A program made the position numbers and the translations under genes. From Streptomyces graminofaciens (GTDB lineage: Bacteria > Actinomycetota > Actinomycetes > Streptomycetales > Streptomycetaceae): 64,000 bases of DNA. The stretch spans positions 930,001-994,000 of the forward strand of contig NZ_AP018448.1 of NCBI RefSeq assembly GCF_030294945.1, given 5' to 3'. Within the stretch, counting starts at the first letter, position 1. Each line of letters opens with the position of its first letter. This document shows positions 3,488 through 50,537 of this stretch, in pieces. Under the pieces are notes generated by a model that saw nothing but the letters and a program-made list of their open reading frames with translations, searched no databases and had not been told where the DNA came from.

Positions 3488-3643
3488 GTGGGGTTCCCCC
3501 CGTCGCCGAGCAAGGTCGCTGCCATGTGGGGCGGCACCCCGGTGACGGTGCGACTGGACGACCTGGACAAGATCTGCGCCGCGTTGGCGTGCACGGTGGC
3601 CGATCTGATGGAGGCCGAGCCGGTGGCCACTGCTGCGGGCCAG
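3488..3643 (+). pseudogene. Truncated XRE/Cro-CI type HTH regulator fragment
   Basis: The plus strand encodes SPSKVAAMWGGTPVTVRLDD followed by LDKICAALACTVADLMEAEP. This matches the second half of a small Cro/C1-type HTH domain, ending in the typical 'TVADLMEAEP' helix. The first helices are missing, and the frame runs directly into the inverted-repeat element at 3640, which would add a foreign tail. It reads as a decayed remnant rather than an intact 70-80 residue regulator. Confidence 0.5.
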
Positions 3644-3764
3644 GGCCTGTCGTCAAACTTGCACGCTCCCCCCACTCTCGAATCCGCTCGAGCGAGAGGT
3701 ACCCCCACGCCGCCGTGCGGCCCGCCCTCCGGGCGAACGACGGGAATTTGACGACAGGACCTAG
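3640..3764. repeat. MITE-like inverted-repeat element, CCAG/CTAG flanked
   Basis: A 117-bp body (3644-3760) starts GGCCTGTCGTCAAAC and ends with the near-complement AATTTGACGACAGGAC. It lies between CCAG (3640-3643) and CTAG (3761-3764), as expected for a 4-bp target duplication with one transition. Inside are two further hairpins, one with CTCTCG/CGAGAG arms. It encodes nothing. The CTAG contains the stop codon of ssuD. The strong secondary structure could also terminate the sulfur operon. Confidence 0.65.
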
Positions 3765-4903
3765 CTCGCGAAGGGCACCTGGGTCGCGGGTGCGGTGGGC
3801 CTGGCGAAGGGGTGGTGCCAGAGGCCCTGGGCGGCCAGGCGCGGCAGGACGCCCTCGCCGAACCAGTACGCCTCCTCCAGGTGCGGATAGCCGGAGAGTA
3901 CGAATTCGTCGATGCCGAGGGAGTGGTACTCCTTGATCCGCTCGGCGACTTCGTCGTGGCTGCCGACCAGGGCGGTGCCCGCGCCGCCGCGGACCAGGCC
4001 GATACCCGCCCACAGGTTGGGGTGGATCTCCAGGGCGTCGCGGCTGCCGCCGTGAAGTTCGAGCATGCGCTGCTGGCCCTCGGACTCGCTGCGCGCGAGG
4101 CCGGCCTGGACGGCTCGTACGGTCTCCGGGTCGAAGCCGTCGAGCAGCCGGTTCGCCTCGGCCCACGCCTGTGCCGACGTGTCGCGCGTGATGACGTGCA
4201 GACGGATGCCGAAGCGGAGCGTGCGGCCCTCCTTCGCCGCGAGCGACCTGAGCCAGGCGATCTTCTCGGCGACCTTGGCGGGCGGCTCGCCCCAGGTGAG
4301 GTAGACGTCGACATGCCGGGCGGCCACCTCACCGGCGATGGGCGAGGAACCGCCGAAGTACACCTCGGGCACCGGGTCGGGCACCCGGGCCAGCTTCGCG
4401 TCCTCGACCTGGACGTGTTCGCCCTTCAGGTCGACGGTCTTGCCCTCCCACAACTCTCGTACGACGTGCAGGAATTCGCCCGTACGGCGATACCGGGCGT
4501 CCTTGTCGAGAAAGTCCCCGTAGGCGCGCTGCTCGTGGCTCTCGCCGCCGGTGACGACGTTGAGGAGAAGCCGTCCGCCGGTCTGCCGCTGGAACGTGGA
4601 GGCCATCTGGGCGGCGAGCGTGGGCGAGACGAAGCCGGGGCGGAAGGCGACCAGGAACTTCAGCCGTTCGGTGTTCTGGCTGACCATCGCGGTGGTCAGC
4701 CAGGCGTCCTCGCACCAGGCGCCGGTGGGGGTGAGCGCGCCGACGAAGCCGAGGTCCTCGGCGGCGCGGGCGATCTGGCTCAGATAGGCGACCGTCGGAG
4801 GCCGGTCACGGCCGGACGCGGTGGCCGGGGTGCCGTGGCCGCCGCCGACGACATGGCGGCTGTCGCCGTTGGTGGGCAGGAACCAGTGGAAGGTGAGGGG
4901 CAT
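3761..4903 (-). CDS. ssuD: FMNH2-dependent alkanesulfonate monooxygenase
   Basis: A 380-residue bacterial-luciferase-like flavin monooxygenase of the SsuD group, which cleaves the C-S bond of alkanesulfonates with FMNH2 and O2 to release sulfite. Recognisable features are the N-terminal FHWFLPTNGD strand, the GGRLLLNVVTGG region, YRRTGEFLHVVRELWEGKTV, YFGGSSP, the GGAGTALVGSHDEVAERI segment and the C-terminal FVLSGYPHLEEAYWFGEGVL. Length fits SsuD (about 380). It is the last gene of a five-gene minus-strand operon, 24 bases after sfnB. Reduced flavin would come from the SsuE-like reductase at 6174. The TAG stop lies in the CTAG flank of an inverted-repeat element. Substrate choice (methanesulfonate or longer sulfonates) cannot be read from sequence. 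Confidence 0.92.
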   Translation of the reverse strand: MPLTFHWFLPTNGDSRHVVGGGHGTPATASGRDRPPTVAYLSQIARAAEDLGFVGALTPTGAWCEDAWLTTAMVSQNTERLKFLVAFRPGFVSPTLAAQMASTFQRQTGGRLLLNVVTGGESHEQRAYGDFLDKDARYRRTGEFLHVVRELWEGKTVDLKGEHVQVEDAKLARVPDPVPEVYFGGSSPIAGEVAARHVDVYLTWGEPPAKVAEKIAWLRSLAAKEGRTLRFGIRLHVITRDTSAQAWAEANRLLDGFDPETVRAVQAGLARSESEGQQRMLELHGGSRDALEIHPNLWAGIGLVRGGAGTALVGSHDEVAERIKEYHSLGIDEFVLSGYPHLEEAYWFGEGVLPRLAAQGLWHHPFARPTAPATQVPFAS

Positions 4904-4927
4904 GGAGGTCTCCGATCCGAGGTGTCG

Positions 4928-6169
4928 CTAGAGGAGCCCATGACGGGGCGGGCGGGTGCCGTTGAGCACGTACCGGCCGATGTGCTGGATCTTCCAGCGG
5001 GCCGGGTCGTGCAGTGTGTGGGTGCGTGCGTCGCGCCAATGCCGGTGCAGATTGAGGGAGCCCAGTGCCGAGCGGGTGCCCGACACCTCGAACAGGGCGC
5101 TCGCCACGTCGAGGGCGGCCTGTGCGGCCTGCACCTTGGCGGCGGCCACGGCGATGGACGCCTCGGCGGCCGTGTCGTCGGTGAGGTCGGCCCGGGCCGT
5201 GTCGACGGCACGGGCGGCCTCACGCAACAGCGCACCCGATGCCCTCGCCTGGATGGCGAGTTCACCGAAGCGCTGGATGAGGAGGGGGTCCTCGGCCGCC
5301 GTCTCGACCCCTGCCTCGAACCAGGGCCGGCTCTTGGTGCGCACGAACCCTACGGCCTCGACGAGCGCCCCTTCGGCGATCCCGACGTCGATCGCCGCAT
5401 GGATCAACTGCGCTACGGACCCGTGAAGTTGGGGCCCCTGGAAGGTGAGGTGGTGCGGGACGACCCGGTCGGCGGGGACGTGGACCTCCGCCAGCCTGAC
5501 CGTGCCGCTGGCCGTCGTACGCTGCCCCATCCCGTCCCAGTCGTCGACGACCGTGAGCCCGGGCGCGTCCCACGGGACATACGCGACGTGCGGGTTGTCG
5601 TTGTCGTCCTCGGCGCGGGCCAGCACCGGGATCCAGTCGGCGAACAGGGCGCCCGTGGAGTAGTGCTTGACGCCGGTCAGGCTGTACGAGCCGTCGGGCC
5701 GGCGTTCGAGCCGAGTGCGGATGTCCTGGATGTGTTTGGTACCCGCCTCGGACTGCGCGTTGCCGAAACGGCGCCCGGCGAGGACCTCACCGAAAAAGAA
5801 TTCCCGCTGTTTCCGGGTTCCCTGACGACGAATCACATTCACGTAGACGAAGTGGTTCTGCGGGATCTGGGCGAGGCTGGCGTCGGCGGAGGCGAGCAGC
5901 CGGAAGATCTCGGCCAGGGTCTCCTGCCGTACGTCCGCTCCCCCGTACTCGGCGGGCACGGTGACGGCGAGCAGCCCGGAGGCCGAGAGCCGGTCCAGCT
6001 CGGCGTGGGGCAGTCGGCGTTCGGCGTCCCGCCGCGAGGCCCCGGCGCGGAACTCCTCGGCGAGCGCGGCGGCGACGGTCAGGGCCTCGACGTCGTCGGC
6101 GATGACCTTCGCACCCGGAAGTCGGTGTGTCGGGGCCTGGGAAGCGTCGTCGATGGGGGCGTCGGTCAT
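4928..6169 (-). CDS. sfnB: SfnB-type sulfur-acquisition acyl-CoA dehydrogenase-fold oxidoreductase
   Basis: A 413-residue protein with the acyl-CoA dehydrogenase fold: N-terminal helical domain (ELDRLSASGLLAVTVPAEYG), middle beta domain (GNAQSEAGTKHIQD, LTGVKHYSTGALFADWIPVL) and C-terminal helices ending WRDARTHTLHDPARWK. That last motif is typical of the SfnB/DszC branch of flavin-dependent monooxygenases rather than true acyl-CoA dehydrogenases. SfnB proteins occur with SfnG in dimethylsulfone utilisation. Here the gene starts about 4 bases after the ssuE stop, so it is tightly operonic. The exact reaction of SfnB is not well defined in general, and I infer a role in using organic sulfur. 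Confidence 0.85.
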   Translation of the reverse strand: MTDAPIDDASQAPTHRLPGAKVIADDVEALTVAAALAEEFRAGASRRDAERRLPHAELDRLSASGLLAVTVPAEYGGADVRQETLAEIFRLLASADASLAQIPQNHFVYVNVIRRQGTRKQREFFFGEVLAGRRFGNAQSEAGTKHIQDIRTRLERRPDGSYSLTGVKHYSTGALFADWIPVLARAEDDNDNPHVAYVPWDAPGLTVVDDWDGMGQRTTASGTVRLAEVHVPADRVVPHHLTFQGPQLHGSVAQLIHAAIDVGIAEGALVEAVGFVRTKSRPWFEAGVETAAEDPLLIQRFGELAIQARASGALLREAARAVDTARADLTDDTAAEASIAVAAAKVQAAQAALDVASALFEVSGTRSALGSLNLHRHWRDARTHTLHDPARWKIQHIGRYVLNGTRPPRHGLL

Positions 6170-6173
6170 GGTG

Positions 6174-6728
6174 TCAGCTCACGGCGGCGAGCAACGGCGC
6201 GTGGCCGAGGGCGGCGAGGAACTGCTCGACGACCTGGCCGAGCGCCTCGGCGGTGGGCGGGGCGACGGTGACCTTGCCGTCGTCCCCGACGGTGATGTCC
6301 TTGTCGAGGGTGAACCAGCCGGGAACGATGTGCCGGGCGCCCATGGAGCTGAGCACCGGGCGCAGGGCGTAGTCGAGGGCGAGGACATGGGCGGTGCTGC
6401 CGCCGGTGGCCAGCGGCAGCACGGCCTTGCCGGTGAGGGCGTACTGCGGGAGCAGGTCGAGCAGGGCCTTGAGGACGCCGGAGTAGGCCGCCTTGTAGAC
6501 GGGGGTGCCGATGACGACGCCGTCGGCGCGTGCGAAGAGTTCGGTGGCCTCGACGATGGCCGGGTGCTTGAAGTCCGCGCCGAGCAGGGCCTCGGCGGGG
6601 ATCGTGCGGACGTCGAGCGGGACGACCTCGTGGCCCTGGGCGGCCAGTCGGGTGTCCAGGTGGCGCAGGAGCTTGGCGGTGCGGGAGGACACGGAGGGAC
6701 TGCCGGAGACGGACAGGACGGTGGCCAT
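6174..6728 (-). CDS. ssuE: NADPH-dependent FMN reductase
   Basis: A 184-residue flavodoxin-fold reductase. The N-terminus carries the flavin phosphate loop (SVSGSPSVSSRTAKLLRHL), then a VVIGTPVYKAAYSGVLKALL segment typical of the SsuE/MsuE family, and GKAVLPLATGGSTAHVLALD. Such enzymes make diffusible FMNH2 for two-component monooxygenases. Four flavin-using oxygenases surround it (SfnG, the DszC-like enzyme, SfnB, SsuD), so this single reductase probably feeds several of them. It sits in the middle of the operon, ~54 bases after the upstream gene. Length is normal for the family. msuE would be an equally fair symbol. Confidence 0.88.
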   Translation of the reverse strand: MATVLSVSGSPSVSSRTAKLLRHLDTRLAAQGHEVVPLDVRTIPAEALLGADFKHPAIVEATELFARADGVVIGTPVYKAAYSGVLKALLDLLPQYALTGKAVLPLATGGSTAHVLALDYALRPVLSSMGARHIVPGWFTLDKDITVGDDGKVTVAPPTAEALGQVVEQFLAALGHAPLLAAVS

Positions 6729-6782
6729 GTGTTCTCTTTCGGGAAGGAGGGGCGCCTCCGCTCGGGAGGCGCCCCGGGGTGG

Positions 6783-8000
6783 TCAGGAGTACCAGGTGGG
6801 TTCGGGTAGTTCGCCTTCGAGGACCCAGCGGCCGACCTCGCGGCGCTTGTAGGCGACGGGGTCGTGGAGGGTGTGGGTGCGGACGTTGCGCCAGAACCGG
6901 TCGAGGCCCTCGGCGGTGGCGGTGGAGCGGGCGCCGGTCACCTCGAAGATCCGGCTGGAGATCTCCAGGGCGACTTCGGTGGCGCGGGCCTTCGCCGCGG
7001 CCACCCGCACCTCGAAGTCGCCGCGGGCCTGCTCGGTGACCGCGTCGGGGTGGTCGTGCAGCTTCTGGCCCTCGGCGGCGACGGCGTCGGTGAGGGCCTC
7101 GACCGCCCACAGTTTCGCGGTCAGATCGCCGTAGATGTCGATGACGTACGGCTCGTCGACCGCCCGCTCGTGACCGCCGTGGAGCCACGACCGGGTCTTG
7201 GTGCGGGTGTAGGTCGCCGCCGTCTCCAGGGCGCCGCCCGCGATGCCCAGATAGAAGCTGACGAAGACCAGTTGGATGGTGGGGACGTTGAGCGTGTTGT
7301 ACGTGCGCGGCTGGAACACCTTGTCGACGTAGCCGGCCGCCGAGGACCACGGGGTGCGGACCCGGTCGATGGTGACGCCGCCGCTCTCGGTGAGCCGCTG
7401 GCCGATGTTGTCCCAGTCGTCGTGGAAGGTGAGGCCATCGGCGTCGGACGGCACGATCGCGAAGACGTGCTGGTCGGTGCCCTCCAGGACGCCTTCGAGG
7501 ACGGTGACGTCGGAGACCTTGCTGCCGGTGGAGAAGGACTTGCGGCCGGTGAAAAGCAGGTCGTCGCCGTCCTCGGTGACCACGACGTCCTTGTCGCGGG
7601 GGTTGACGGCCCCGCCGAAGAACCAGCGGTTGCGGGCGGCCTCGGCCTCGATGTGCTCCCACTGCTCGCGGGTGCCGACGAGGCGGGCAGCCCGGTTCCA
7701 CAGGTAGTGGTAGCCGAGGAGCTGTCCGATCGAGCCGTCGGCCTTGGCGATTTCACGGACGACGCGGTAGGCGGTCGGCCAGTCGTGGCCTCCGCCGCCG
7801 TGCTCCGTGGGGCCGAGCAGGGTGACGAGGCCGGCGTCCTTCAGCAGCTGGACCTCGGTGTACGGGGTTCGGCCCGCGCGGTCACGCTCGGCGGCGTCGG
7901 CGGCGAGGACGGCCGCGACCTCGGCAGCGCGGGCGATCCACTCCTCGGCGGTCTCGGGGGCGGGCCGGGTCTGCCAGTCGGTGGAAGTGGCTGTGCTCAT
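6783..8000 (-). CDS. DszC/SfnB-like flavin-dependent monooxygenase
   Basis: A 405-residue acyl-CoA-dehydrogenase-fold protein. I chose the ATG at 8000 (MSTATSTDWQTR) because an AAAGAGG lies upstream; the frame extends to 8057 without a better site. Visible motifs: LLKDAGLVTLLGPTEHGGGG, GQLLGYHYLWN, the FSTGSKVSD/DDWDNIGQR beta domain and FWRNVRTHTLHDPVAYKRRE near the end. The RTHTLHDP motif is shared with DszC (dibenzothiophene monooxygenase) and SfnB. It is a paralogue of the gene at 4928 but clearly diverged. It probably oxidises an organosulfur compound using FMNH2 from the SsuE-like reductase; the substrate is not determinable here. It lies ~49 bases after sfnG in the operon. Confidence 0.85.
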   Translation of the reverse strand: MSTATSTDWQTRPAPETAEEWIARAAEVAAVLAADAAERDRAGRTPYTEVQLLKDAGLVTLLGPTEHGGGGHDWPTAYRVVREIAKADGSIGQLLGYHYLWNRAARLVGTREQWEHIEAEAARNRWFFGGAVNPRDKDVVVTEDGDDLLFTGRKSFSTGSKVSDVTVLEGVLEGTDQHVFAIVPSDADGLTFHDDWDNIGQRLTESGGVTIDRVRTPWSSAAGYVDKVFQPRTYNTLNVPTIQLVFVSFYLGIAGGALETAATYTRTKTRSWLHGGHERAVDEPYVIDIYGDLTAKLWAVEALTDAVAAEGQKLHDHPDAVTEQARGDFEVRVAAAKARATEVALEISSRIFEVTGARSTATAEGLDRFWRNVRTHTLHDPVAYKRREVGRWVLEGELPEPTWYS

Positions 8001-8049
8001 GCGTAATGACCTCTTTCGCGGTGCGGGGCGGAAGGAGTGCGGACGGTGG

Positions 8050-9204: not shown

Positions 9205-9365
9205 GGCGGACTCCTGTCGCGGAGAGGGTTTTACGGCACGCCGAATTCCATGCCCGGCAAATGAGCGAACGGGAATTCGGGCGGTGCGGGGAAACACGAC
9301 GCACGGCTGCCCGAAGGAGCAGGTGCGGCGGGGAAGAAGTGCGGAAGGGCGGCGGATCCGGGGAA

Positions 9366-9449
9366 TCAGGCCGCGGCGCGACAGGAGGCGCTGGAGACGC
9401 GCGCGAGGTCGACGTGGCGTCGCCGCGTGAGGTCCAGTCGCATCTTCAT
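9366..9449 (-). CDS. Cysteine-containing leader peptide upstream of sulfur operon
   Basis: A 27-codon frame starts at ATG 9449 (GATCGAGGG just upstream as ribosome binding site; a second ATG at 9443 is in frame) and encodes a peptide containing LTRRRHVDLARVSSASCR before the stop at 9366. The RRHVDL-R-S-S-x-x-C core matches the small 'putative leader peptides' found upstream of sulfur and cysteine genes in actinomycetes. In that family a Cys codon near the 3' end is thought to sense cysteine supply through ribosome stalling. It lies 161 bases before sfnG on the same strand. Coding status is inferred from the motif, ribosome binding site and position. Confidence 0.78.
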   Translation of the reverse strand: MKMRLDLTRRRHVDLARVSSASCRAAA

Positions 9450-9586
9450 GCCCTCGATCGTGACAGTCGCCGTGCGCCACGGTCAAGGACAACCCGACCG
9501 GTCTCGTATCGCGGACCATTGAATTTCACGAAGGCGTGACAGGGAAACCCTTGAACCGCGCGTCGGGAACGCCGCATTGTGCGTGC

Positions 9587-16072: not shown

Positions 16073-16152
16073 GCGCAGAATGAACGTACGCGGCGCTTAC
16101 CGCATACCCCACCAGACGCGGTCAGGCCTGCCGAGTTCAAAGGAGTCGAGTC

Positions 16153-22856: not shown

Positions 22857-23037
22857 CCAGGGCGTGTTTCGAAAGTGGCGTCGTCCGCCCGGAGGGCGGG
22901 GCCCGCGGCGTCTGGTGCGGTGCATCGCAAGGCGGAGGGTCGTCCGCGTACTGGGCGTACGCGGACGACCCCGACAACGCGGCGAGGTGCCGTGCCAGAC
23001 GTCACGGGGCAGACGGGACTTTCGAAACACGCCCTAG
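22857..23037. repeat. MITE-like element, copy A (173-bp body)
   Basis: The body 22861-23033 starts GGCGTGTTTCGAAAGT and ends with the exact complement ACTTTCGAAACACGCC, between CCAG (22857-22860) and CTAG (23034-23037). Inside is a perfect 15-bp hairpin (arms GGGTCGTCCGCGTAC, 22937-22951, and its complement, 22957-22971). It is nearly identical to copy B at 42094, with about four differences over 173 bases. It encodes nothing convincing. The CTAG includes the stop codon of the minus-strand GNAT gene. Confidence 0.85.
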
Positions 23038-23882
23038 CCGAGTTCCAGGGTCGTCACCCCGAAGACCCGCTCCTTCGTGTAGGGCCGGATCGGGCCCGTG
23101 TACATACGGGCCGTGTCGAAGGAGGGGACGAGGCCGTACTCCTCGACCAGGGCGACGGCCGCCGTGTTCGGCAGGGGGACGTCGATGGCCAGCTCCCGTC
23201 CGGCGGCCTCGGCGGCCAGGCCGAGGAGGAGTGCCCGGGCGTCCTCGGCGGTGTCGGCGAACAGCGGGCCGACGCGCAGCGCGTCGCGGCCGGGGCGGAC
23301 GACACCGTAGCCGGTGAGCCGTCCGTCGACGACGCGGGCGAGGGCCCGGTGTCCGTCGGTGGTCAGCCAGCGCCGCAGGAATCGGGGACGGTCGGCGGGG
23401 TGACAGGCGCTGTCGTACGCCGCGACGGCTCCCGCGTCCTCGACCGGCCGGACATCGGCGGGGACGGCGGCCTCGGGGACGACGCCCGTGAACCGGGCGG
23501 TGCGGTAGGCGAGCTCGAAGCCGGACTGCCGGTAGTTGTCCTGCTGGGCGGGGACGCCGTCCAGGCCGACCGTACGGCCGTCGGCATGGGCGAGTGCGGT
23601 CTTCCAGGTGGTGAGGCCGTAGCCGTGGCCGCGCAGGTCGGGGCGGACGAGATAGAAGCCGAGGAAGGAGTAGTCGTCGCCGTAGTTGACCACGGAGACG
23701 GCGGAGACCGGTTCGCCGTCGAGCCTTCCGATGAAGAAGCCGGCGGGGTCCTGCGCGAAGAAGCACGCGGCGTCGGACAGCCCCGGATTCCACCCCTCCT
23801 CCCCCGCCCATCGGGCGACCACCCGCCAGTCGTCGAGCGTGGCTCGGCCGACGACGAGGTCCTGGGTACCCGGAGAGGTCAT
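23034..23882 (-). CDS. GNAT N-acetyltransferase with tandem GNAT/SCP2-like half
   Basis: A 282-residue GNAT protein. I chose the ATG at 23882 (MTSPGTQDLVVGRATLDDWR), with AGGGAG upstream. The first GNAT unit shows SFLGFYLVRPDLRGHGYGLT (motif A) and DGVPAQQDNYRQSGFELAYR. The second half (YGVVRPGRDALRVGPLFADT, AIDVPLPNTAAVALVEEYGL) matches the DUF1248-type C-terminal domain found in such acetyltransferases. Its TAG stop is supplied by the CTAG flank of inverted-repeat element copy A. Substrate unknown. Confidence 0.83.
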   Translation of the reverse strand: MTSPGTQDLVVGRATLDDWRVVARWAGEEGWNPGLSDAACFFAQDPAGFFIGRLDGEPVSAVSVVNYGDDYSFLGFYLVRPDLRGHGYGLTTWKTALAHADGRTVGLDGVPAQQDNYRQSGFELAYRTARFTGVVPEAAVPADVRPVEDAGAVAAYDSACHPADRPRFLRRWLTTDGHRALARVVDGRLTGYGVVRPGRDALRVGPLFADTAEDARALLLGLAAEAAGRELAIDVPLPNTAAVALVEEYGLVPSFDTARMYTGPIRPYTKERVFGVTTLELG

Positions 23883-24299
23883 GCGTGCACTCCCTGTCGA
23901 TGTGTATGAGGCCGAGGGCGCGGTGGTCGGCCGCACCCGCAGCATCCTGACGGACGCCGGCAGGAGCCCGCGACGCCGAAAGCGGACGACTTCGCCGGGC
24001 AACAGTGGGTTCGGGAACGCCCAGTTCACGCGTACGGGTGAGAGGCGTCCCCGGCGACGACGGCGGCGGCGCGCAGGCTACGGCACCTCGGCGCGGTCCG
24101 CTCGCCGGGAGGCGTGGCCGCATGGGCCCGCCTATGGTGATCCGAGGGCGCGCCCCGGCCGGTGGCCGGGAGTCCCCGCCGGTCCCTGCCGGGTGATCCG
24201 TGCCGGCGCCCTCGCCCGGTGCTCGCGCCGGGTGGGCACAGCCGGTGTCCTGTCAGGTGTCCGGAGCCCGTGTTCCCGTCGGGGTCCCTGGAGGCACGC
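23883..24299. other. Intergenic region between divergent genes
   Basis: About 415 bases between the divergently transcribed GNAT and secreted peptidase genes. Promoters for both should lie here, but I could not place them. The open frames crossing it are extensions of the peptidase frame or shadows. No hairpin or RNA gene is evident. Confidence 0.45.
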
Positions 24300-26025: not shown

Positions 26026-26565
26026 ATGCGCATCCGTTCCGCCCGTTCCTTTCTCGTGCTCTCCACCACGGCTACCGCCGGTGCCGCGCTGCTGCTGACG
26101 GCCGCGCCGCAGGGCCTCGCCGCCGAGTCGGCCGTCAAGGTCCCGGTCTGCAAGGCGAAGGTCCTCAAGCTGAAGGCCAAGGTGTCCAAGGACCCGAGGG
26201 TCGTGCACATCAGCGTCAAGAACACGAGCACCCGCACCTGCACCGTCGACCGCATCCCCACCGTCACCTTCGGCGACCTGGACGGCGCGGCGCTGCCGGT
26301 GCCGCAGGGCGACAGCGCCCCGTACAAGGTCGGCGCCGGCAAGACGGTGTACGCGTCGGTGCGGACGATCGCCGACCTGAAGGACCCCGAGGCCCGCCGC
26401 GTGAAGACGATCACCGTGTCGGCCAACCCGGCCTACAACGGCCGTACGTTCACCGCGAAGGAGATGGGCGCGGCCAAGGTCGTGAAGGTCTGGATTCCCG
26501 TGACGACCTGGTGGAAGCCGTCGCAGGCCGCCGCCGACAAGGCGCTCCAGAAGGCCGTCGGCTAG
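26026..26565 (+). CDS. Secreted DUF4232-type protein
   Basis: A 179-residue exported protein with a signal peptide (ARSFLVLSTTATAGAALLLT, cleavage near GLAAESA). The mature part (VKVPVCKAKVLKLKAKVSKD, VHISVKNTSTRTCTVDRIPT, YKVGAGKTVYASVRTIADL) has two conserved Cys and the beta-rich pattern of DUF4232. Function is unknown for the family. It follows the secreted peptidase by ~125 bases on the same strand. Its stop TAG lies in the CTAG at the start of an inverted-repeat element. Confidence 0.75.
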   Translation: MRIRSARSFLVLSTTATAGAALLLTAAPQGLAAESAVKVPVCKAKVLKLKAKVSKDPRVVHISVKNTSTRTCTVDRIPTVTFGDLDGAALPVPQGDSAPYKVGAGKTVYASVRTIADLKDPEARRVKTITVSANPAYNGRTFTAKEMGAAKVVKVWIPVTTWWKPSQAAADKALQKAVG

Positions 26566-26641
26566 GGCCTGCCGTTTGGATCTCGCCGGCTTCGGGCGTC
26601 GGCGCCTGCGGCTCGGGCGAGATCCGAAACACAGGCCCCAG
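26562..26641. repeat. Short inverted-repeat element, CTAG/CCAG flanked
   Basis: The body 26566-26637 (72 bp) begins GGCCTGCCGTTTGGATC and ends GATCCGAAACACAGGCC, imperfect complements including an exact GGATCTCGCC/GGCGAGATCC match. It is flanked by CTAG (26562-26565) and CCAG (26638-26641). The left CTAG carries the stop codon of the DUF4232-type gene. The hairpin would also serve as a terminator. Confidence 0.65.
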
Positions 26642-40432: not shown

Positions 40433-40451
40433 CTCCGGAAGGAACCATCAC

Positions 40452-41279
40452 GTGATTCCCGAAGGTCAGCCCCGCCGTCGCGTGCTCGGCGGCCTGCTCG
40501 CGGCGGGAGCGGTCACGCTCGGCGCCGCCCCCGCGGCGTCGGCCGCCGCCTCCTCGGGCGGCGCCGCGAGACCGACCGTCGTGCTCGTGCACGGCGTGTT
40601 CGCCGACGCCTCGGGCTGGAACGACGTCATCGCCCGGCTGCTGAAGGCCGGGTTCCCGGTCATCGCCCCGGCGAACCCGCTGCGCGACCTGGCGGGCGAC
40701 TCGGCGTATGTCTCCAGCGTCGTCGGCTCCGTCTCCGGCCCGGTCATCCTGGTCGGCCACTCCTACGGCGGGGAGGTCATCACCAACGCCGGACGCGGCC
40801 ATTCCCACGTCAAGGCGCTGGTGTACGTCGGGGCGTTCGCGCCCGACGAGGGCGAGAGCGCGCTGGACCTGGCCGGTATGTTCCCGGGCAGCAAGCTGGA
40901 GGACGCGCTGGTGATCCGCCCGTTCCCGCTGCCCGACGGCACCACCGGCAGGGACGGGTACATCGACCCGGCGAAGTTCCGCGAGGTCTTCGCCGCGGAC
41001 CTGCCGGCCTCCGTGACGCGGCTGATGGCCGCCACCCAGCGCCCCGGCAGTGTGGGCGGGCTGTCGTCCGCCAGCGGCGTACCGGCGTGGAAGAGCCTGC
41101 CGTCCTGGTACGTGATCCCCACCGCCGACCAGGTCATCCCGGCGGCGGTGCAGCGCTTCATGGCCGAGCGCGCGAGGAGCAAGGTCGTCGAGGTGAAGGG
41201 TTCCTCGCACGTCGTGATGATGTCGCACCCCGACGTCGTCGTCCGCCAGATCGTGGCCGCCCACCGCGCCACCCGTTGA
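40452..41279 (+). CDS. Tat-exported alpha/beta hydrolase
   Basis: A 275-residue hydrolase with a twin-arginine signal (EGQPRRRVLGGLLAAGAVTL, cleavage near AASAAASS). Oxyanion side: VVLVHGVFADASGWNDV. Nucleophile: ILVGHSYGGEVITNAG. Acid region: WYVIPTADQVIP. His: EVKGSSHVVMMSHPD. It matches the short exported esterase-like hydrolases common in actinomycetes. GTG start with AAGGAA upstream. It lies between two other hydrolases in one probable operon under the LAL regulator. Confidence 0.88.
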   Translation: MIPEGQPRRRVLGGLLAAGAVTLGAAPAASAAASSGGAARPTVVLVHGVFADASGWNDVIARLLKAGFPVIAPANPLRDLAGDSAYVSSVVGSVSGPVILVGHSYGGEVITNAGRGHSHVKALVYVGAFAPDEGESALDLAGMFPGSKLEDALVIRPFPLPDGTTGRDGYIDPAKFREVFAADLPASVTRLMAATQRPGSVGGLSSASGVPAWKSLPSWYVIPTADQVIPAAVQRFMAERARSKVVEVKGSSHVVMMSHPDVVVRQIVAAHRATR

Positions 41280-41299
41280 CCTCCTGGAAGGAAAAATCG

Positions 41300-42097
41300 A
41301 TGAGCGCACCGGACACCATCGTCCTGATCCACGGCTTCTGGGTGACGCCGCGCAGCTGGGAGCACTGGATCGACCGATACGAGAAGCAGGGCTACCGTGT
41401 GCTCGCGCCCGCCTACCCCGGTTTCGAGGTGGAGGTCGAGTCCCTGAACGCCGACCCGACCCCGATCGAGAAGGTGACCGCCCCGCAGATCGTGGAGAGC
41501 CTGGCGAACGTGATCCGCGGGCTCGACAGGCCGCCCGTGCTGATCGGCCACTCCGCGGGCGGCGCGTTCACCCAGATCCTGCTCGACCACGGCTTCGGCG
41601 CGGCCGGAGTGGCCATCAACTCCGCGGCCACGGAGGGCGTGAAGGTGGTCCCGCTGAGCCAGGTGAAGTCGACGTTCCCCGTGCTCAAGAACCCCGCCAA
41701 CCATCACAAGGCGGTCGGCCTCACCCATGAGCAGTGGCACTACGCCTTCACCAACACGTTCTCCGAGGAGGAGTCCCGGGCGCTGTACGAGCGTTACGCG
41801 ATCCCCGCGTCGGGCCGCATCCTGTGGAACAGCGTGCTGGCCAACTTCCAGCCCGGCCACCAGGACATCTGGGTGAACTACCACAACGACGGCCGTGCCC
41901 CGCTGCTGTTCCTCTCCGGCGAGCTGGACCACCTGATGCCGCCCAAGGTGCAGCAGTCCAACGCCGAGCACTACAAGTCGGACACCGTCACGGAGGTCAA
42001 GGTGTATCCGGGGCAGCCGCATCTGATGCCGGCCGCGCCGGGCTGGGAGGAGGTCGCGGACTACGCGCTGTCGTGGGCCCTGGCGCACGCCCGCTAG
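41300..42097 (+). CDS. Cytoplasmic alpha/beta hydrolase
   Basis: A 265-residue alpha/beta hydrolase: VLIHGFWVTPRSWEHWIDRY, nucleophile elbow VLIGHSAGGAFTQILLDHGF, acid in LLFLSGELDHLMPPKVQQ, and His in VKVYPGQPHLMPAAPGWEEV. GGAAGGA precedes the ATG, which is 21 bases after the previous stop. No signal peptide, so it works inside the cell, unlike its neighbour. Its TAG stop forms part of the CTAG that starts inverted-repeat element copy B. Substrate unknown. Confidence 0.88.
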   Translation: MSAPDTIVLIHGFWVTPRSWEHWIDRYEKQGYRVLAPAYPGFEVEVESLNADPTPIEKVTAPQIVESLANVIRGLDRPPVLIGHSAGGAFTQILLDHGFGAAGVAINSAATEGVKVVPLSQVKSTFPVLKNPANHHKAVGLTHEQWHYAFTNTFSEEESRALYERYAIPASGRILWNSVLANFQPGHQDIWVNYHNDGRAPLLFLSGELDHLMPPKVQQSNAEHYKSDTVTEVKVYPGQPHLMPAAPGWEEVADYALSWALAHAR

Positions 42098-42274
42098 GGC
42101 GTGTTTCGAAAGTGGCGTCGTCCGCCCGGAGGGCGGGGCCCGCGGCGTCTGGTGCGGTGCATCGCAAGGCGGAGGGTCGTCCGCGTACTGGGCGCACGCG
42201 GACGACCCCGACAACGCGGCGAGGTGCCGTGCCAGGCGTCGCGGGGCAGACGGGACGTTCGAAACACGCCCTAG
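42094..42274. repeat. MITE-like element, copy B (173-bp body)
   Basis: The body 42098-42270 starts GGCGTGTTTCGAAAGT and ends ACGTTCGAAACACGCC, flanked on both sides by CTAG (42094-42097 and 42271-42274), a perfect 4-bp duplication. It matches copy A (22861-23033) across the full length with about four substitutions, one of them in the inner hairpin. The left CTAG includes the stop codon of the upstream hydrolase. Confidence 0.88.
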
Positions 42275-42337
42275 CCATCTGCACGCCCGGGGCGGCGGTC
42301 CTGCCCGCCGTCCCGGGCCACCGGAAGGGATCACGGT

Positions 42338-43129
42338 ATGACCGATGTCCGCGTCACGCACATCGGCGGTCCGACCACGCTGATCGAAGTCGACGGCTGG
42401 CGGCTGCTCACCGACCCGACGTTCGATCCGCCGGGTCGCCGCTACTCGTTCGGCTGGGGCACATCCTCCCGTAAGACGTCCGGCCCCGCCCTCGCCGTCG
42501 CGGACCTGCCGCCGGTCGACGCCGTCCTGCTCACCCACGACCATCACGGCGACAACCTCGACACGGCCGGGCGCGCCCTGTTGCCGACCGCGGACGTCGT
42601 GCTCACCACCCCGGCCGGGGCACGACGGCTCGGCGGCAACGCCCGTGGCCTGGCGCCCTGGACGACCACACGCCTTGAGGCACCCGGGCGCAAGACGATC
42701 GACGTGACCGCCACCCCGGCCCGTCACGGGCCGCCGCTGTCCCGGCCGGTCACCGGGCAGGTCACCGGCTTCGCGCTCCGCTGGGAGGGACAGCGGCACG
42801 GCGTGCTGTGGATCTCCGGGGACACCGTCCTCCACGACGGCGTACGCCACGTCGCGCGCCGCCTGGACGTGGGCACGGCCCTGTTGCACATGGGCGGTGT
42901 GCGCTTCCCGCTGACGGGTCCGGTCCGCTACACGATGACGGCCGCTCAGGCCGTGGAACTGTGCCGTCTCCTCGCCCCGCGCACCGCCTTCCCCGTCCAC
43001 TACGAGGGCTGGCATCACTTCCGCGAGAACCGCGAGGCCATCGAACGGCGTCTGGCCTCGGCGCCCGCCGACATCCGCGACCGCTTCCGCTGGCTGCCCG
43101 CAGGAACGGGCGTCGACGTCACTGTGTGA
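42338..43129 (+). CDS. MBL-fold metal-dependent hydrolase
   Basis: A 263-residue metallo-beta-lactamase-fold protein of the UlaG-like branch. The metal-binding motif is LLTHDHHGDNLD (T-H-x-H-x-D-N). Other metal ligands are probably in VTATPARHGPP, LWISGDTVLHDG and FPVHYEGWHHF. The N-terminus VTHIGGPTTLIEVDGWRLLT also fits. It starts just downstream of inverted-repeat element copy B and is followed by the transglutaminase-like gene. Substrate unknown. Confidence 0.87.
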   Translation: MTDVRVTHIGGPTTLIEVDGWRLLTDPTFDPPGRRYSFGWGTSSRKTSGPALAVADLPPVDAVLLTHDHHGDNLDTAGRALLPTADVVLTTPAGARRLGGNARGLAPWTTTRLEAPGRKTIDVTATPARHGPPLSRPVTGQVTGFALRWEGQRHGVLWISGDTVLHDGVRHVARRLDVGTALLHMGGVRFPLTGPVRYTMTAAQAVELCRLLAPRTAFPVHYEGWHHFRENREAIERRLASAPADIRDRFRWLPAGTGVDVTV

Positions 43130-43237
43130 TGAGCCGCGGTAGTGACCGCACGGGTCGAATTTTGGCAGGATGAGCCGAACCGGCCCGCAATTCGAACGCG
43201 TGGCCGATTCCACCTGGCTTCCTCTGGGGGTTCCGTC

Positions 43238-44158: not shown

Positions 44159-44231
44159 CCGCTCACCCCGCGGTTCCCTCTCACCGTCGGTGGGCGGCTC
44201 GGGTCGCCCACCGACACACACCCCGCCTGGT

Positions 44232-44477: not shown

Positions 44478-44559
44478 GTCCGTGCTCCTCCCGGTTCGTC
44501 GTCCGCCCGCCAGACTAGCGATCGACCCCCGCCGCCGACAGGCCACGTGGGGAGGAGGT

Positions 44560-46787: not shown

Positions 46788-47725
46788 AGCAACTCCTTGT
46801 ACATGTCGTAGTCCGCGTCGGGTTCGCCGGTGGGCCGGTAGTGGTCGGGGTAACGGGCACCCTCCGTCCACACCGCCTCGACGCGCAGCCCCATGCGGAC
46901 CCGGTCGTAGGGGATGCCGGCGATCCGGCCGTGCAGGGCGAGGTCGGCGCCGTCGAGGGCGATGTGGGCATAGACGTACGGGACTTCGATGTCGAGCTGT
47001 TTCGCCTTGATGTTGACGATGCAGAAGGTGGTGACCGTGCCGCGCGGCCCGACCTCGACCTGTTCGGCCGTGGCGACACCGCAGGTGGGGCAGGCGCCCC
47101 GCGGCGGGACGTACACCTTCCGGCAGGACGGGCAGCGTTCGCCGACGAGGCGGCGCTCGGCAAGGGCGTGGATGTAGCCGGTCTGGGCGCGGCCGGGCGA
47201 GTAGGTGTAGTCGAGGCGGGCGGGCGCGACGATGCCGGTGACCGGGTCCTCGAACTCGCCGGTGTGGCCGTCGAGTCGGCCCGGCTCTCCGTCGTACGGC
47301 TCGAAGCAGGCGATGTCCGTGATGGCGCCGGAGCGTTCCCCGGCCCAGCGGACGCGGACGCGCATACCGGTGTGCACGGCGTCGGGGCCGGGGGCGTCGA
47401 GGGCGTGCAGGAGGGCGGTGTCGGCACCGTCGAGGCGGACGAGGACCCAGGCGAAGGGGGCATCGAGGGGCTGGCCCCGGCGGGGTTCGTGGTTCCAGGC
47501 CCAGGTGGTGACCGTGCCGGTGGGGGCCACCTCGACCAGGTCGCGGATCTCCTCGGCGGTGACGGGGTCGTACTCGACGGGCGGAACGAGCACGCGACCG
47601 TCGCCGGTCCGCACGCCGAGCACGACGCGCTCGCGCAGGCCGGTGAGGAAGGCGCTCTGGACGGGGCCGAGGGAGCGGGTGAAGGGGAACTCGACGGTGA
47701 GGGGGGCTTTGAGGATGTCGGGCAT
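46784..47725 (-). CDS. DUF35 zinc-ribbon OB-fold acyl-CoA-associated protein
   Basis: A 313-residue protein with a rubredoxin-like zinc ribbon (ERCPSCRKVYVPPRGACPTC, C-x2-C-x10-C-x2-C) followed by an OB-fold (VTTFCIVNIKAKQLDIEVPY, VYAHIALDGADLALHG). An N-terminal ~160 residues include a second OB-like half (TVTTWAWNHEPRRGQPLDAP). DUF35 proteins bind thiolases and shuttle or position acyl-CoA. Translationally coupled to the thiolase gene downstream. The ATG at 47725 has AAGGAGG ~11 bases upstream. The double OB-fold size is larger than the usual ~140 residues. Confidence 0.85.
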   Translation of the reverse strand: MPDILKAPLTVEFPFTRSLGPVQSAFLTGLRERVVLGVRTGDGRVLVPPVEYDPVTAEEIRDLVEVAPTGTVTTWAWNHEPRRGQPLDAPFAWVLVRLDGADTALLHALDAPGPDAVHTGMRVRVRWAGERSGAITDIACFEPYDGEPGRLDGHTGEFEDPVTGIVAPARLDYTYSPGRAQTGYIHALAERRLVGERCPSCRKVYVPPRGACPTCGVATAEQVEVGPRGTVTTFCIVNIKAKQLDIEVPYVYAHIALDGADLALHGRIAGIPYDRVRMGLRVEAVWTEGARYPDHYRPTGEPDADYDMYKELL

Positions 47726-47869
47726 CAGGGGGCTTACCTCCTTCGAGAGGGGACGACAGGGACGCCCCGTAAGGGGCACGGGGCTGTATCGATATGCGGC
47801 TCCACCGCGTGGGCGCGACCAGACACAGACGACCCGCGGCCGAGACACAACCGCCCCCTGGTGGACCAC

Positions 47870-48673
47870 CTACGCCCGCTTGTAAACAGGGGCCCGCTTC
47901 TCGGCGAAGGCACGGGCACCCTCCTTGGCGTCGGCCGTGTCGAACACCGGCCACCCCCGCTTGAGCTCGGCGGCCAGTCCCTCCGCCTCGGTCAGCTCGG
48001 CGGTCTCGTACACGGACGCCTTGACCGCCTCCACGGCCAGCGGCCCACACGCGTTGATCCGTTCGGCGATCTCCAGAGCCTTCGCCAGGGCCGTCCCGTC
48101 CGGGACGACATGCCCGATGAGCCCGATGTCCGCGGCCTCGCGGGCGCTGTACGGCCGCCCGGTGAGCAGCATCTCCAGGGCATGCGTGCGCGGGATCTGC
48201 CGCTGGAGCCGAACCGTGGAGCCGCCGATGGGGAACAGACCGCGTTTGACCTCGAAGAGGCCGAATGTCGCCGACTTGCCCGCCACGCGAATGTCGGTGC
48301 CCTGGAGCATCTCGGTGCCGCCCGCGACGCAGTACCCCTCGACGGCGGCGATCACGGGCTTGCGCGGCCGATGGTGGCGGAGCATCGCCTTCCAGTGCAG
48401 ATCGGGGTCGGCCTTGAGCCGGTCGCGGTACTCCTGGCCCACCATCCCCTTGTCGCCGGCCAGCGCCTTGAGGTCCATTCCGGCGCAGAAGTCGCCCCCG
48501 GCCCCCGTGAAGACGATCGAGCGGACACCGTCGTCCTCGTCGGCCTCGATCCAGCCGTCGTAGAGGCCGACGAGCATCGGCAACGAGAGCGCGTTCTTGG
48601 CCTCGGGCCTGTTGAGCGTGAGCACGAGCGTGGCGCCTTCGCGCCGCACAGTGAGGTGTTCCGTGCCAACCAT
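47870..48673 (-). CDS. Crotonase-family enoyl-CoA hydratase/isomerase
   Basis: A 267-residue crotonase. Oxyanion segments: FTGAGGDFCAGMDLKALAGD and AVEGYCVAGGTEMLQGTDIR, with the Glu of GGTEML in the active-site position. The C-terminus shows GRPYSAREAADIGLIGHVVP. It likely hydrates enoyl-CoA in acyl chain degradation. First gene of the minus-strand group; ATG 48673 has GGAGGAAG upstream. A 17-bp palindrome lies 65 bases before the start. It is divergent from the acyl-CoA synthetase gene at 48850. Confidence 0.9.
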   Translation of the reverse strand: MVGTEHLTVRREGATLVLTLNRPEAKNALSLPMLVGLYDGWIEADEDDGVRSIVFTGAGGDFCAGMDLKALAGDKGMVGQEYRDRLKADPDLHWKAMLRHHRPRKPVIAAVEGYCVAGGTEMLQGTDIRVAGKSATFGLFEVKRGLFPIGGSTVRLQRQIPRTHALEMLLTGRPYSAREAADIGLIGHVVPDGTALAKALEIAERINACGPLAVEAVKASVYETAELTEAEGLAAELKRGWPVFDTADAKEGARAFAEKRAPVYKRA

Positions 48674-48737
48674 CGCTTCCTCCAGTCTCCGGAACGAGAA
48701 CAGGTTGCAGTAGGCGGGGAGACAGGACAAGAGTTTT

Positions 48738-48754
48738 CTGACACTCAGTCAGAT
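48738..48754. promoter_or_regulatory. 17-bp operator palindrome in the acyl-CoA gene cluster
   Basis: TCTGACACTCAGTCAGA lies in the 176-base control region between the crotonase and acyl-CoA synthetase genes. Outer arms are TCTGA and TCAGA. An almost identical site occurs at 58401-58417. The flanks also match (AAG-AGTTTTC before, TT after). The form suits a TetR-family repressor. Confidence 0.7.
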
Positions 48755-48849
48755 TCTTTTGCGCGGGGCCTTCACAGTGACGGCGCCCTTTGCTCTGATG
48801 ACCGGCGAACCGACGGATACCAGGCACGCCCGGGGTCAGGAGGAGTGCG

Positions 48850-50469
48850 GTGGAGTACAACCTTGCCGACCTGTTCGAGTCTGTCGTGGACGTGGTCCCG
48901 GACCGTGCGGCGCTCGCTTATCTCGACATCCCCGGCACGGGCGAGGAGCGCCGGCTGACGTACGCGGAGCTGGACGCGGCGGCGAACCGTGTCGGCCACC
49001 AGCTGCTCGACAGCGGCCTCAGGCCCGGTGACCATGTCGGCCTGCATCTGTACAACTGTGTCGAATACCTCCAAACCGCACTGGGCTGTCTCAAGGCGCG
49101 GCTGGTCCCCGTCAACGTCAACTACCGCTATGTGGAAGAGGAGTTGGTCTACCTCTACCGGGACGCGGATCTGGTGGGGCTCGTCTTCGACGCGGAGTTC
49201 ACCGGGCGGGTGGCGGGGGCGCTGCCGAGGACGGAGAAGCTGCGGTGGCTGGTTCGGGTGGGGACTCCCCCGGCCGACGCCCCCGAGCTGCCCGGCGTCA
49301 TGGACTTCGCGGAGATCTCCGAGAACGCCGAACGAGGCTTTCCCGCGCGCTCGGCCGACGACCAGTTCATCATCTACACCGGCGGCACGACGGGCATGCC
49401 CAAGGGCGTGATGTGGCGTCAGGAGGACCTGTTCTTCTCGGGGTTGGGCGGTGGCGCCCCGACCGGGGAGCCGGTGAAGGCGCCGGAGGAACTGGCCCGG
49501 CGGGTCGCGGCGGGTGGCGAGGGCATCACGTTCTTCCCGACGGCGCCGCTGATGCACGGCACGTCGACGCTCACGGCGTTCATCGGGTTCAACTTCGGCC
49601 AACGGGTGGTGATCCACCGGAAGTTCGTGCCGGAGGAGGTCCTGCGGACGATCGAGAAGGAGAAGGTGACGAGTGTGTCGCTGGTGGGCGACGCGATGCT
49701 GCGCCCGCTGATCGACGCCCTCGGCGGCCCCATGAAGGACACAGACTGTTCAGCGCTGTTCAGCGTGTCCTCGTCCGGCGCGATCATGTCGGAGACGGTA
49801 CGGCGGCAGTTCCAGGAGCTGGTTCCGAACGCGATGCTGCTGAACAACTTCGGCTCGTCGGAGTCCGGCTTCAACGGTACGGCGACGGAGGACTCGGGGG
49901 CAGGCGACGGCTTCCGGATCCGCGTCAACGCCCGTACCCAGGTCGTGGACCCGGCGACGTACGAGCCGGTCCCCGTCGGCGTACCCGGCCGGGTCGCCCA
50001 GCGCGGTCACGTCCCCCTCGGCTACTACAACGACTCGAGGAAGACCGCCGAGACCTTCTTCGAGAAGGACGGCGAGCGCTGGGTGCTGCTCGGCGACATG
50101 GCCACGGTGGACGAGGAGGGCGTCGTCACCGTCCTCGGCCGCGGTTCGCAGTGCATCAACACCGGTGGCGAGAAGGTGTACCCGGAGGAGGTCGAGCAGG
50201 CCCTCAAGGCCCACCCCGACGTGTACGACGCGCTGGTCGCCGGGGTCCCGGACGCCCGCTGGGGCAGCCACGTGGCGGCCGTGGTCCAGCTCCGCGAGGG
50301 CGCTGCCCGCCCCTCCCTGGAGGACATCCAGACCCACTGCCGCACCCGCCTCGCCGGCTACAAGATCCCCCGCCAGCTGGTCCTCGCCGACACCATCCAA
50401 CGCTCACCGAGCGGGAAGGCCGACTATCGATGGGCACGGTCGGTGGCGGCCACGGCGGACAGGCCCTAG
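48850..50469 (+). CDS. Acyl-CoA synthetase (AMP-forming, FadD-like)
   Basis: A 539-residue adenylate-forming ligase. Starts GTG with AGGAGGAG upstream. AMP-binding P-loop: FIIYTGGTTGMPKGVMWRQE. Other core motifs: NNFGSSESGFNG (A5-like), WVLLGDMATVDEEGVVTVLG (A7/A8) and GGEKVYPEEVEQALKAHPDV; the C-terminal Lys lies in RSPSGKADYRWA. It activates a fatty, steroid-derived or aromatic acid as CoA ester. Divergent from the crotonase-thiolase operon and sharing the palindrome at 48738. Its stop TAG is in the CTAG of inverted-repeat element copy C. Confidence 0.93.
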   Translation: MEYNLADLFESVVDVVPDRAALAYLDIPGTGEERRLTYAELDAAANRVGHQLLDSGLRPGDHVGLHLYNCVEYLQTALGCLKARLVPVNVNYRYVEEELVYLYRDADLVGLVFDAEFTGRVAGALPRTEKLRWLVRVGTPPADAPELPGVMDFAEISENAERGFPARSADDQFIIYTGGTTGMPKGVMWRQEDLFFSGLGGGAPTGEPVKAPEELARRVAAGGEGITFFPTAPLMHGTSTLTAFIGFNFGQRVVIHRKFVPEEVLRTIEKEKVTSVSLVGDAMLRPLIDALGGPMKDTDCSALFSVSSSGAIMSETVRRQFQELVPNAMLLNNFGSSESGFNGTATEDSGAGDGFRIRVNARTQVVDPATYEPVPVGVPGRVAQRGHVPLGYYNDSRKTAETFFEKDGERWVLLGDMATVDEEGVVTVLGRGSQCINTGGEKVYPEEVEQALKAHPDVYDALVAGVPDARWGSHVAAVVQLREGAARPSLEDIQTHCRTRLAGYKIPRQLVLADTIQRSPSGKADYRWARSVAATADRP

Positions 50470-50537
50470 GCGTGTTTCGAAGGTCCCGTCTGCCCCGCCC
50501 TCCGGGCGGACGACGCCACTTCCGAAACACGCCCTAG
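50466..50537. repeat. MITE-like element, copy C (deleted, inverted)
   Basis: Only 64 bp of body (50470-50533) remain, between CTAG (50466-50469) and CTAG (50534-50537). It is in the opposite orientation to copies A and B: its first ~29 bases correspond to their right end and the remainder to their left end, joined at a shared CCCCG. About 110 internal bases are missing, consistent with deletion at short homology. One G of the left terminus is also lost. It sits at the stop of the acyl-CoA synthetase gene. Confidence 0.8.

What the first reader, a model, noticed from the sequence alone, without database searches (positions are those of the whole stretch)
3640..50537. Five short inverted-repeat elements inserted at C(T/C)AG, each using the stop codon of a gene
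Elements at 3640-3764, 22857-23037, 26562-26641, 42094-42274 and 50466-50537 have terminal inverted repeats starting GGC(C/G)TG and are flanked by CTAG or CCAG. Copies B (42094) and C (50466) have CTAG on both sides. In each of the five cases the TAG of CTAG is the stop codon of a flanking gene (ssuD, GNAT, DUF4232 type, hydrolase, acyl-CoA synthetase). CTAG is rare in high-GC DNA and is found at C-TAG stops, so a CTAG-targeting element would land at gene ends and restore the stop each time. That would be a harmless insertion niche and would leave a terminator hairpin behind.
Basis: partly seen in the sequence, partly recalled or inferred. Interest (0 to 1): 0.8.

Follow-up and report, generated by a model that had tools for sequence, protein, structure and literature searches.

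The report
Mobile hairpins landing on stop codons
Short mobile DNA hairpins in a soil bacterium jump into the rare sequence CTAG, so most of the surviving copies sit exactly on a gene's stop codon and rebuild it, and many carry a conserved folded core that turns up between several different sets of transposon ends.

Summary
All five window elements have inverted repeats at CTAG (CCAG on one side in three), and the TAG is the stop of the gene named. Of 45 paired copies of the GGGCGTGTTTCGAA family in the own genome, 40 have CTA/TAG on both sides, 37 lie on a stop and none inside a called gene; of 39 other CTAGs in an even sample 6 are stops. The element begins with G and duplicates TA, so both junctions read CTAG again. 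Other CTAGs lie mostly in genes (14 of 39) or within 150 bp upstream of starts (16 of 39), so CTAG targeting plus loss of harmful insertions explains most of the bias. A terminator role is unsupported. Relatives end the gene at the same place but seldom with CTAG (9 of 41). Unexpectedly, the 104-nt core is a covarying hairpin seen with 12 clusters of terminal repeats among 33 entries and matched in 18 of 83 genera, without an Rfam match at gathering score. IS630, IS701, IS982 and IS5 elements use CTAG too; in 19 of 27 IS630 loci it supplies the transposase's own stop.

The parts
3643..3761 (.). Element 1, 119 bp, ends GGGCCTGTCGTCAAA; left flank CCA, right flank TAG
3761..4903 (-). 380-aa luciferase-like monooxygenase gene; its TAG stop is the complement of 3761-3763 (element's last C plus TA)
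22860..23034 (+). Element 2, 175-bp GGGCGTGTTTCGAA family; left CCA, right TAG
22905..23009 (+). Conserved hairpin core of element 2 (model R1, 104.3 bits)
23034..24029 (-). 331-aa GNAT gene; TAG stop is the complement of 23034-23036
26026..26565 (+). 179-aa DUF4232 gene; TAG stop at 26563-26565 (TA plus element's first G)
26565..26638 (.). Element 3, 74 bp, ends GGGCCTG; left CTA, right CAG
41276..42097 (+). 273-aa alpha/beta hydrolase gene; TAG stop at 42095-42097
42097..42271 (+). Element 4, 175-bp GGGCGTGTTTCGAA family, CTAG on both sides; site empty in Streptomyces sp. F001
42142..42246 (+). Conserved hairpin core of element 4 (model R1, 103 bits)
48850..50469 (+). 539-aa AMP-binding (acyl-CoA synthetase type) gene; TAG stop at 50467-50469
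50469..50534 (.). Element 5, short palindromic form of the GGGCGTGTTTCGAA family, too short for the core; left end one G shorter; CTAG on both sides

Best explanation
The elements are non-autonomous, IS5-type miniature transposons (MITEs). A transposase supplied in trans cuts CTAG and duplicates TA; because each element begins with G and ends with C, both junctions read CTAG again. A gene that ended in C-TAG therefore keeps its stop (TA from the host, G from the element), also when two convergent genes share one CTAG. In this genome most other CTAGs lie in coding sequence or just upstream of starts, where insertions are lost, so survivors collect on stop codons. Each insertion leaves two CTAGs, so the site can be hit again and elements of different families can come to share it. 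Many of the elements carry a conserved single-stranded fold as core, found together with different transposon ends. Shown here: ends, target, regenerated stop, genome-wide bias, native gene end in relatives, one empty site, covariation. Inferred: the transposase in trans, the selective loss, the use of the fold.
For: 40 of 45 copies have CTA/TAG flanks and the other 5 differ by one change on one side. 37 of 45 at stops, 0 inside called genes, 2 within 150 bp upstream of a start, against 6, 14 and 16 of 39 background CTAGs (p = 8e-10, 5e-6 and 4e-5). Against other harmless CTAGs the excess is not significant in the even sample (37:6 against 6:3, p = 0.18). Independent annotation: of four plasmid copies in annotated regions, three have a listed gene whose TAG stop ends exactly at the junction. 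Second genome, G066 (3 contigs): 16 of 26 copies read at stops, against 1 of 9 other CTAGs in the same flanks (p = 0.018). Gene ends are native: 28 of 41 orthologous ends at the same codon. Empty site over both flanks, 87% over 170 bp. A full IS with ends GGGCCTGTGTGA, CTAG flanks and an IS5-family transposase lies in the same genome.
Against: No autonomous IS with the GGGCGTGTTTCGAA ends was found at the end matches examined (96 of 98 places), so the mobilising transposase is not identified. Full IS630 copies with CTAG on both sides lie on host stops in only 7 of 23 cases against 37 of 45 for the MITE (p = 4e-5; genomes differ), so target plus loss may not be the whole story. With the larger, not random set of 181 background CTAGs, stops exceed other harmless sites (37:6 against 41:27, p = 0.005). 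In the genus set 16 of 28 hand-picked elements are on stops against 6 of 19 other CTAGs in the same flanks, not significant (p = 0.14); over all 43 loci by the left copy 15 are stops and 8 lie inside genes. Relatives seldom show CTAG at the aligned stop (9 of 41; 0 of 12 in F001). Gene calls in the own genome are by my own codon-score caller.
Confidence: 0.8

Rival explanations
1. Targeting, not loss: the transposition machinery prefers CTAG at gene 3' ends (transcription end, local structure or longer sequence context), so insertions fall on stops from the start.
For: 0 of 45 copies lie in called genes although 14 of 39 CTAGs do, and the copies are alike, hence recent (nearest-neighbour identity 98.7% on average for 31 full copies); stop excess over other harmless CTAGs p = 0.005 in the larger set; MITEs are more stop-biased than IS630 at the same target.
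Against: Excess over other harmless CTAGs is not significant in the even sample (p = 0.18), and the larger set is drawn around the elements. I tested no longer target motif.
Confidence: 0.2
2. The elements are kept because they help: 3'-end hairpins that terminate transcription or protect mRNA.
For: The 175-nt element 4 folds as one hairpin, -126.6 kcal/mol, z = -8.35, and on the other strand z = -8.00; copies sit directly on stops.
Against: No terminator-like site with T run round element 4 (the others were not scanned); no orientation bias (14 sense, 9 antisense, 4 with genes on both sides, 1 unread of 28); convergent context not significantly enriched; a hairpin just downstream would serve as well, yet overlap with the stop is exact.
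Confidence: 0.12
3. The conserved core is the real family: a structured RNA (or single-stranded DNA) motif with its own function, and the ends are replaceable vehicles.
For: 12 clusters of terminal repeats among 33 entries, 11 of the clusters represented in the core alignment; 33 cores covary, 0 of 500 shuffles reach the observed values on five measures; G-U 200 cells against A-C 16 on the modelled strand; matched in 18 of 83 genera.
Against: 8 of 45 copies are 29-72 bp and cannot hold the core, and 6 of these 8 have CTA/TAG on both sides, so the core seems not needed for insertion, unless it was deleted later; no promoter, partner protein or fixed gene neighbour was looked for beyond the flanks; ends could drift by co-evolution with transposases around an old core.
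Confidence: 0.35
4. The insertion creates the stop: the gene was longer or ended otherwise and the element supplied a new TAG.
For: The G of the left-junction TAG does come from the element; in relatives TGA is the commoner stop (26 of 41).
Against: Host C and G on the two outer sides imply that CTAG existed before; 28 of 41 orthologues end at that very codon.
Confidence: 0.03

Closest known systems
IS870 of Agrobacterium (Fournier, Paulus and Otten 1993; only the title seen, in the reference list of PMC6471742; the paper is not held; the host name is recalled)
   Same: By its title it requires CTAG to make a stop codon. IS630-type elements met here do likewise: in 19 of 27 loci read the transposase frame ends on the flanking TAG.
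   Different: IS870 uses CTAG for the stop of its own gene. The elements of the finding carry no gene; the stop restored is the host gene's.
IS5-family insertion sequences and their MITEs
   Same: Ends beginning GGGCCTG, CTAG flanks, a full IS of this kind in the same genome.
   Different: No IS with the exact GGGCGTGTTTCGAA ends found; a core shared by several end types is not what a simple internal-deletion MITE would show.
RUP of Streptococcus pneumoniae, a MITE attributed to IS630-Spn1 (passages in PMC2229807)
   Same: 107 bp, TA-containing target, many copies, thought to be moved in trans.
   Different: Said there to favour regions with IS elements; no stop-codon niche in the passages seen; other host.
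ERIC, YPAL and Correia elements (passages and table of PMC2229807)
   Same: Small interspersed repeat elements of bacteria.
   Different: Other hosts and targets; YPAL duplications vary from 3 to 26 bp.

Membership tests
MITE (non-autonomous IS derivative) | short, terminal inverted repeats, many copies | tested here: met
   45 paired copies of 29-180 bp in one genome
MITE (non-autonomous IS derivative) | no transposase gene of its own | tested here: met
   29-180 bp, too short
MITE (non-autonomous IS derivative) | target duplication, with an empty site in a relative | tested here: met
   CTA/TAG on both sides in 40 of 45; one empty site over both flanks, in Streptomyces sp. F001, with a single TAG (ATAG, not CTAG)
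MITE (non-autonomous IS derivative) | autonomous partner with the same ends | tested here: inconclusive
   none with GGGCGTGTTTCGAA ends at 96 of 98 end matches examined; related ends on an IS5-family IS
IS5 family derivative | moved by an IS5-family transposase | not testable with these tools
   inferred from similar ends and target only
IS870-like use of CTAG | CTAG target | tested here: met
IS870-like use of CTAG | target completes the element's own reading frame | tested here: not met
   the finding's elements have no gene; met instead by IS630 elements, 19 of 27 loci read
Intrinsic terminator | GC hairpin followed by a T run | tested here: not met
   0 found in 41900-42500, element 4 only
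Rfam RNA family | match at gathering score | tested here: not met
   0 in the window; best weak match at element 4 23.6 bits against a cutoff of 70
Conserved structured nucleic acid (core) | covariation beyond controls | tested here: met
   97.5% of cells paired, covariation score 0.342 against 0.140 shuffled, slid versions at most 0.117

The most novel reading that the evidence does not exclude
The 104-nt core is an undescribed, strand-specific structured RNA (or single-stranded DNA) family of actinomycetes that spreads by exchanging its terminal repeats, riding on whichever CTAG-targeting transposase is at hand, and stop codons serve the whole community of CTAG elements as renewable landing sites.
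Probability: 0.35. Interest if true: 0.85.

Novelty: new variant of a known kind. Interest (0 to 1): 0.68.

Why it matters
It shows how a mobile element can be nearly harmless by construction: a target that in this genome lies mainly in genes, before genes or in stop codons (36 of 39), and ends that rebuild the stop. The same four bases also finish the transposase genes of IS630 elements. The conserved core found with different ends gives a testable case for a folded nucleic acid that outlives its transposon ends, and a covariance model with which to look for its transcript and partner.

Tried and rejected
Terminator reading: no T run round element 4, no orientation bias. Created-stop reading: rejected by orthologous gene ends. 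Phage origin: no match of element 4 among the phage records. Known RNA family: none at gathering score; weak matches to mir-1397 and VA are taken as chance long-hairpin matches. Parent IS by plasmid search: 18 Streptomyces plasmid records matched the first 57 bases, none with a transposase named under the match. Annotated plasmid copies: five regions read, one without annotated features; I first overlooked, and then checked, that in three of the other four the listed gene ends with TAG exactly at the junction; in the fourth the nearest such gene end is 227 bp away. G189, another genus: ends are degenerate; of 29 loci with ends 6 scored as stop, 13 intergenic, 10 inside; not counted as support for the niche. 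G125: 15 loci, 12 with at least one CTAG side, 6 stop and 6 inside by the left junction copy, several with doubtful ends. Strict stacking (another element with 13 of 16 matching ends abutting at the shared TA): 3 of 45 in the own genome, 5 of 43 genus loci, two of these doubtful by their ends; 2 of 36 background CTAGs, which are the two ends of one other MITE. ORFs of 388 and 322 aa without a stop in two other ISs had no family match; the 388-aa one is antisense to an IS630-like match; neither was counted as a target-supplied stop.

Rows dropped before counts: unpaired ends (for example the copy at 5028848) are not among the 45; 2 of the 98 end-match places were not fetched; 144 CTAGs next to repeat-like ends were dropped from the background over all loci; 2 of 43 orthologue rows were unreadable, and the 40 stretches fetched for it were chosen by me from the matches; 3 of 15 rows were unreadable; of 43 genus loci I picked 28 by hand for good ends; the 33 aligned elements were picked by hand too; 26 of 30 fetched G066 loci, of 51 matches, were used; 3 of 30 IS630 loci of odd length were dropped. 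In one search two of the 31 full copies were wrongly oriented by my pattern, which lowers the mean pairwise identity printed there.

Literature: searches of the held library listed no paper that by title or abstract start treats CTAG-targeting MITEs of Streptomyces or this core; the library lacks most subscription papers. Two papers were opened, by passage only. CTAG or YTAR preferences of IS630 and IS701 are recalled from no call.
Full report
Setting. The window is bases 930001-994000 of a single 11.6-Mb contig. The four best named matches to a window gene are Streptomyces, so the host is taken to be a Streptomyces; this is inference.

The five elements. Searches show them as described. Read with TA as the duplicated target, the ends are GGGC(C/G)TG.. 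and the site is C^TA^G; a 4-base CTAG duplication with ends GGC(C/G)TG gives the same letters and cannot be told apart. Two have CTAG on both sides, three have CCAG on one side. In all five the TAG is the stop of a called gene: luciferase-like monooxygenase, GNAT, DUF4232, hydrolase and AMP-binding. Geometry does the restoring: on the left the stop is TA plus the element's first G; on the right it is, on the other strand, TA plus the complement of the element's last C.

Genome-wide. A 175-bp copy finds 38 full-length copies at 93% or more and two at 77%. Exact or one-mismatch ends occur 98 times, the reversed control once. 45 copies have both ends, 37 of them 172-180 bp and 8 of them 29-72 bp. 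Flanks: CTA/TAG 40, CCA/TAG 2, CTA/TGG 2, CCT/TAG 1, the last being the window copy with an end one base short. With a codon-score gene caller of my own, 34 of 45 are on stops by the left junction copy and 37 of 45 by either copy; the other 8 lie between genes and none inside. For comparison, 39 CTAGs in twenty evenly spaced 20-kb stretches, those next to repeat-like ends dropped, fall as 16 within 150 bp upstream of a start, 14 inside genes, 6 stops and 3 other. Counts with other edge rules and without dropping were 9 of 49 and 10 of 45 stops. The CTAGs just upstream of starts may be parts of TAGNNT -10 boxes; that motif is recalled and was not tested.

Independent annotation. In four annotated Streptomyces plasmid regions with an element, three have a listed gene whose TAG stop ends exactly on the junction (S. 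atratus NZ_CP108277, Streptomyces sp. AMCC400023 NZ_CP024990, Streptomyces sp. NBC_01178 NZ_CP108593); in the fourth (NZ_CP109093) the nearest such gene end lies 227 bp away.

Why stops. CTAGs in genes or before genes are the ones where insertion would hurt. Against the other harmless CTAGs the stop excess is not significant in the even sample (37:6 against 6:3, p = 0.18) but is in the larger set drawn around the elements (37:6 against 41:27, p = 0.005). Loss of harmful insertions therefore explains most of the bias; some true preference cannot be excluded. IS630 elements with CTAG on both sides are on host stops in only 7 of 23, which speaks against loss alone, with the reserve that genomes and neighbourhoods differ.

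Other families and genomes. Of 17 other repeat-ended elements in the own genome, nearly all at CTAG, 8 are on stops, 6 intergenic and 3 inside by the left copy alone; one of the 3 is the window's first element, which is a stop by its right copy. In G066 (3 contigs), 26 copies read: 16 stop, 10 intergenic, against 1 stop among 9 other CTAGs in the same flanks (p = 0.018). Of 43 genus loci, one per genome, the left copy alone gives 15 stop, 20 intergenic, 8 inside; the 28 that I picked for good ends give 16 stop, 10 intergenic, 2 inside by either copy, against 6 stops among 19 other CTAGs in their flanks (p = 0.14). So the bias is strong in the own genome, seen in G066, and weaker and not significant against its own control in the mixed genus set. 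The element matches 131 of 150 genomes of the genus, often through the core alone.

Empty sites and native stops. Gene ends next to 12 of the sites were compared with relatives in 40 stretches: of 43 comparisons 41 could be read; 28 end at the same codon, 37 within 9 nt; stops are TGA 26 and TAG 15, with CTAG in 9. Streptomyces sp. F001 has the site of element 4 empty, with both flanks aligned at 87% over 170 bp and a single TAG after CGA where our genome has CGC. Of five relatives read at that site three have TAG, two TGA, none CTAG; of 12 readable gene ends in F001 four are TAG, six TGA, two TAA, none CTAG. So the gene end is native; the CTAG itself is seen in only a minority of relatives at this distance.

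Shared sites. Because CTAG is renewed at both ends, sites can be hit repeatedly. 9 of 45 copies have another repeat-like end at a CTAG within 260 bp, where the background rate is 0.013 per 520 bp. By the strict test of a whole second element abutting at the shared TA it is 3 of 45, and 5 of 43 genus loci. In L371 an IS, a core-bearing MITE and two further ISs follow each other sharing CTAGs. NCBIfam names IS701, IS982, IS630 and IS5 among the full elements with CTAG flanks. Of 27 IS630 loci read, 23 have CTAG on both sides, and in 19 the transposase frame is open to the last base and stops on the flanking TAG, as the title of the IS870 paper says for that element (title seen).

The core. 33 hand-picked elements from 32 genomes (two from the own genome) align over a common core. 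Ends of 33 entries, an overlapping set, fall in 12 clusters at 13 of 16 identities; 11 of the clusters are represented in the alignment. RNAalifold on the full alignment gives 59 pairs, 37 with a compensated change. On the core, 37 pairs: 97.5% of cells paired, 17 pairs with both sides changed, covariation score 0.342 against 0.140 in shuffles; 0 of 500 shuffles reach any of the five values, and slid structures score at most 0.117. On the modelled strand there are 200 G-U and 16 A-C cells; a structure kept only as double-stranded DNA would not favour one over the other. Six pairs hold 155 of the 200, and the structure was predicted with RNA energies, so the number is not a test by itself; 20 pairs show some G-U and 10 some A-C. 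The loop strands around GCAAGGCG and GACAACGCG are nearly invariant. Model R1 matches 40 of 158 genomes of the class in 18 of 83 genera at E <= 0.001. The weakest of these may be chance, but outside the genus seven genomes of four genera have a best E-value below 1e-10. Of 11 loci from outside the genus, 5 show inverted-repeat ends with TA on at least one side, 4 do not, and 2 could not be read. Rfam has no match at gathering score.

What the core does is open. It seems not needed for insertion: 8 of 45 copies are too short to hold it, and 6 of these have CTA/TAG on both sides, though a later deletion cannot be excluded. Relative to the gene ended it lies in either direction (14 and 9), so it is not simply a 3' UTR signal. 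A folded transcript, or a folded single strand in transposition, remain the best guesses.

Noticed in passing
window 22905-23009 and 42142-42246; model R1 in other genomes: Conserved covarying hairpin core shared by elements with different terminal repeats, matched in 18 of 83 genera of the class.
   Followed up: partly
L372 1371-2494 and IS630 loci L453-L482: IS630 transposase frames that end on the TAG of the flanking CTAG, 19 of 27 loci read.
   Followed up: yes
L371 1530-4834: Four mobile elements in a row sharing CTAG junctions.
   Followed up: partly
own genome 10046503-10046531 (L084): A 29-bp copy made of little more than the two ends, left flank CCA, right flank TAG, scored as lying on a stop.
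   Followed up: no
window 50260-50352, minus strand: ARAGORN calls a tRNA-Pro (agg) inside the AMP-binding gene; probably a false call.
   Followed up: no
own genome 5018726 and 5470202: Both copies abut a 1443-bp element with the same ends at the shared CTAG; the one at 5018726 is IS701 by NCBIfam.
   Followed up: no
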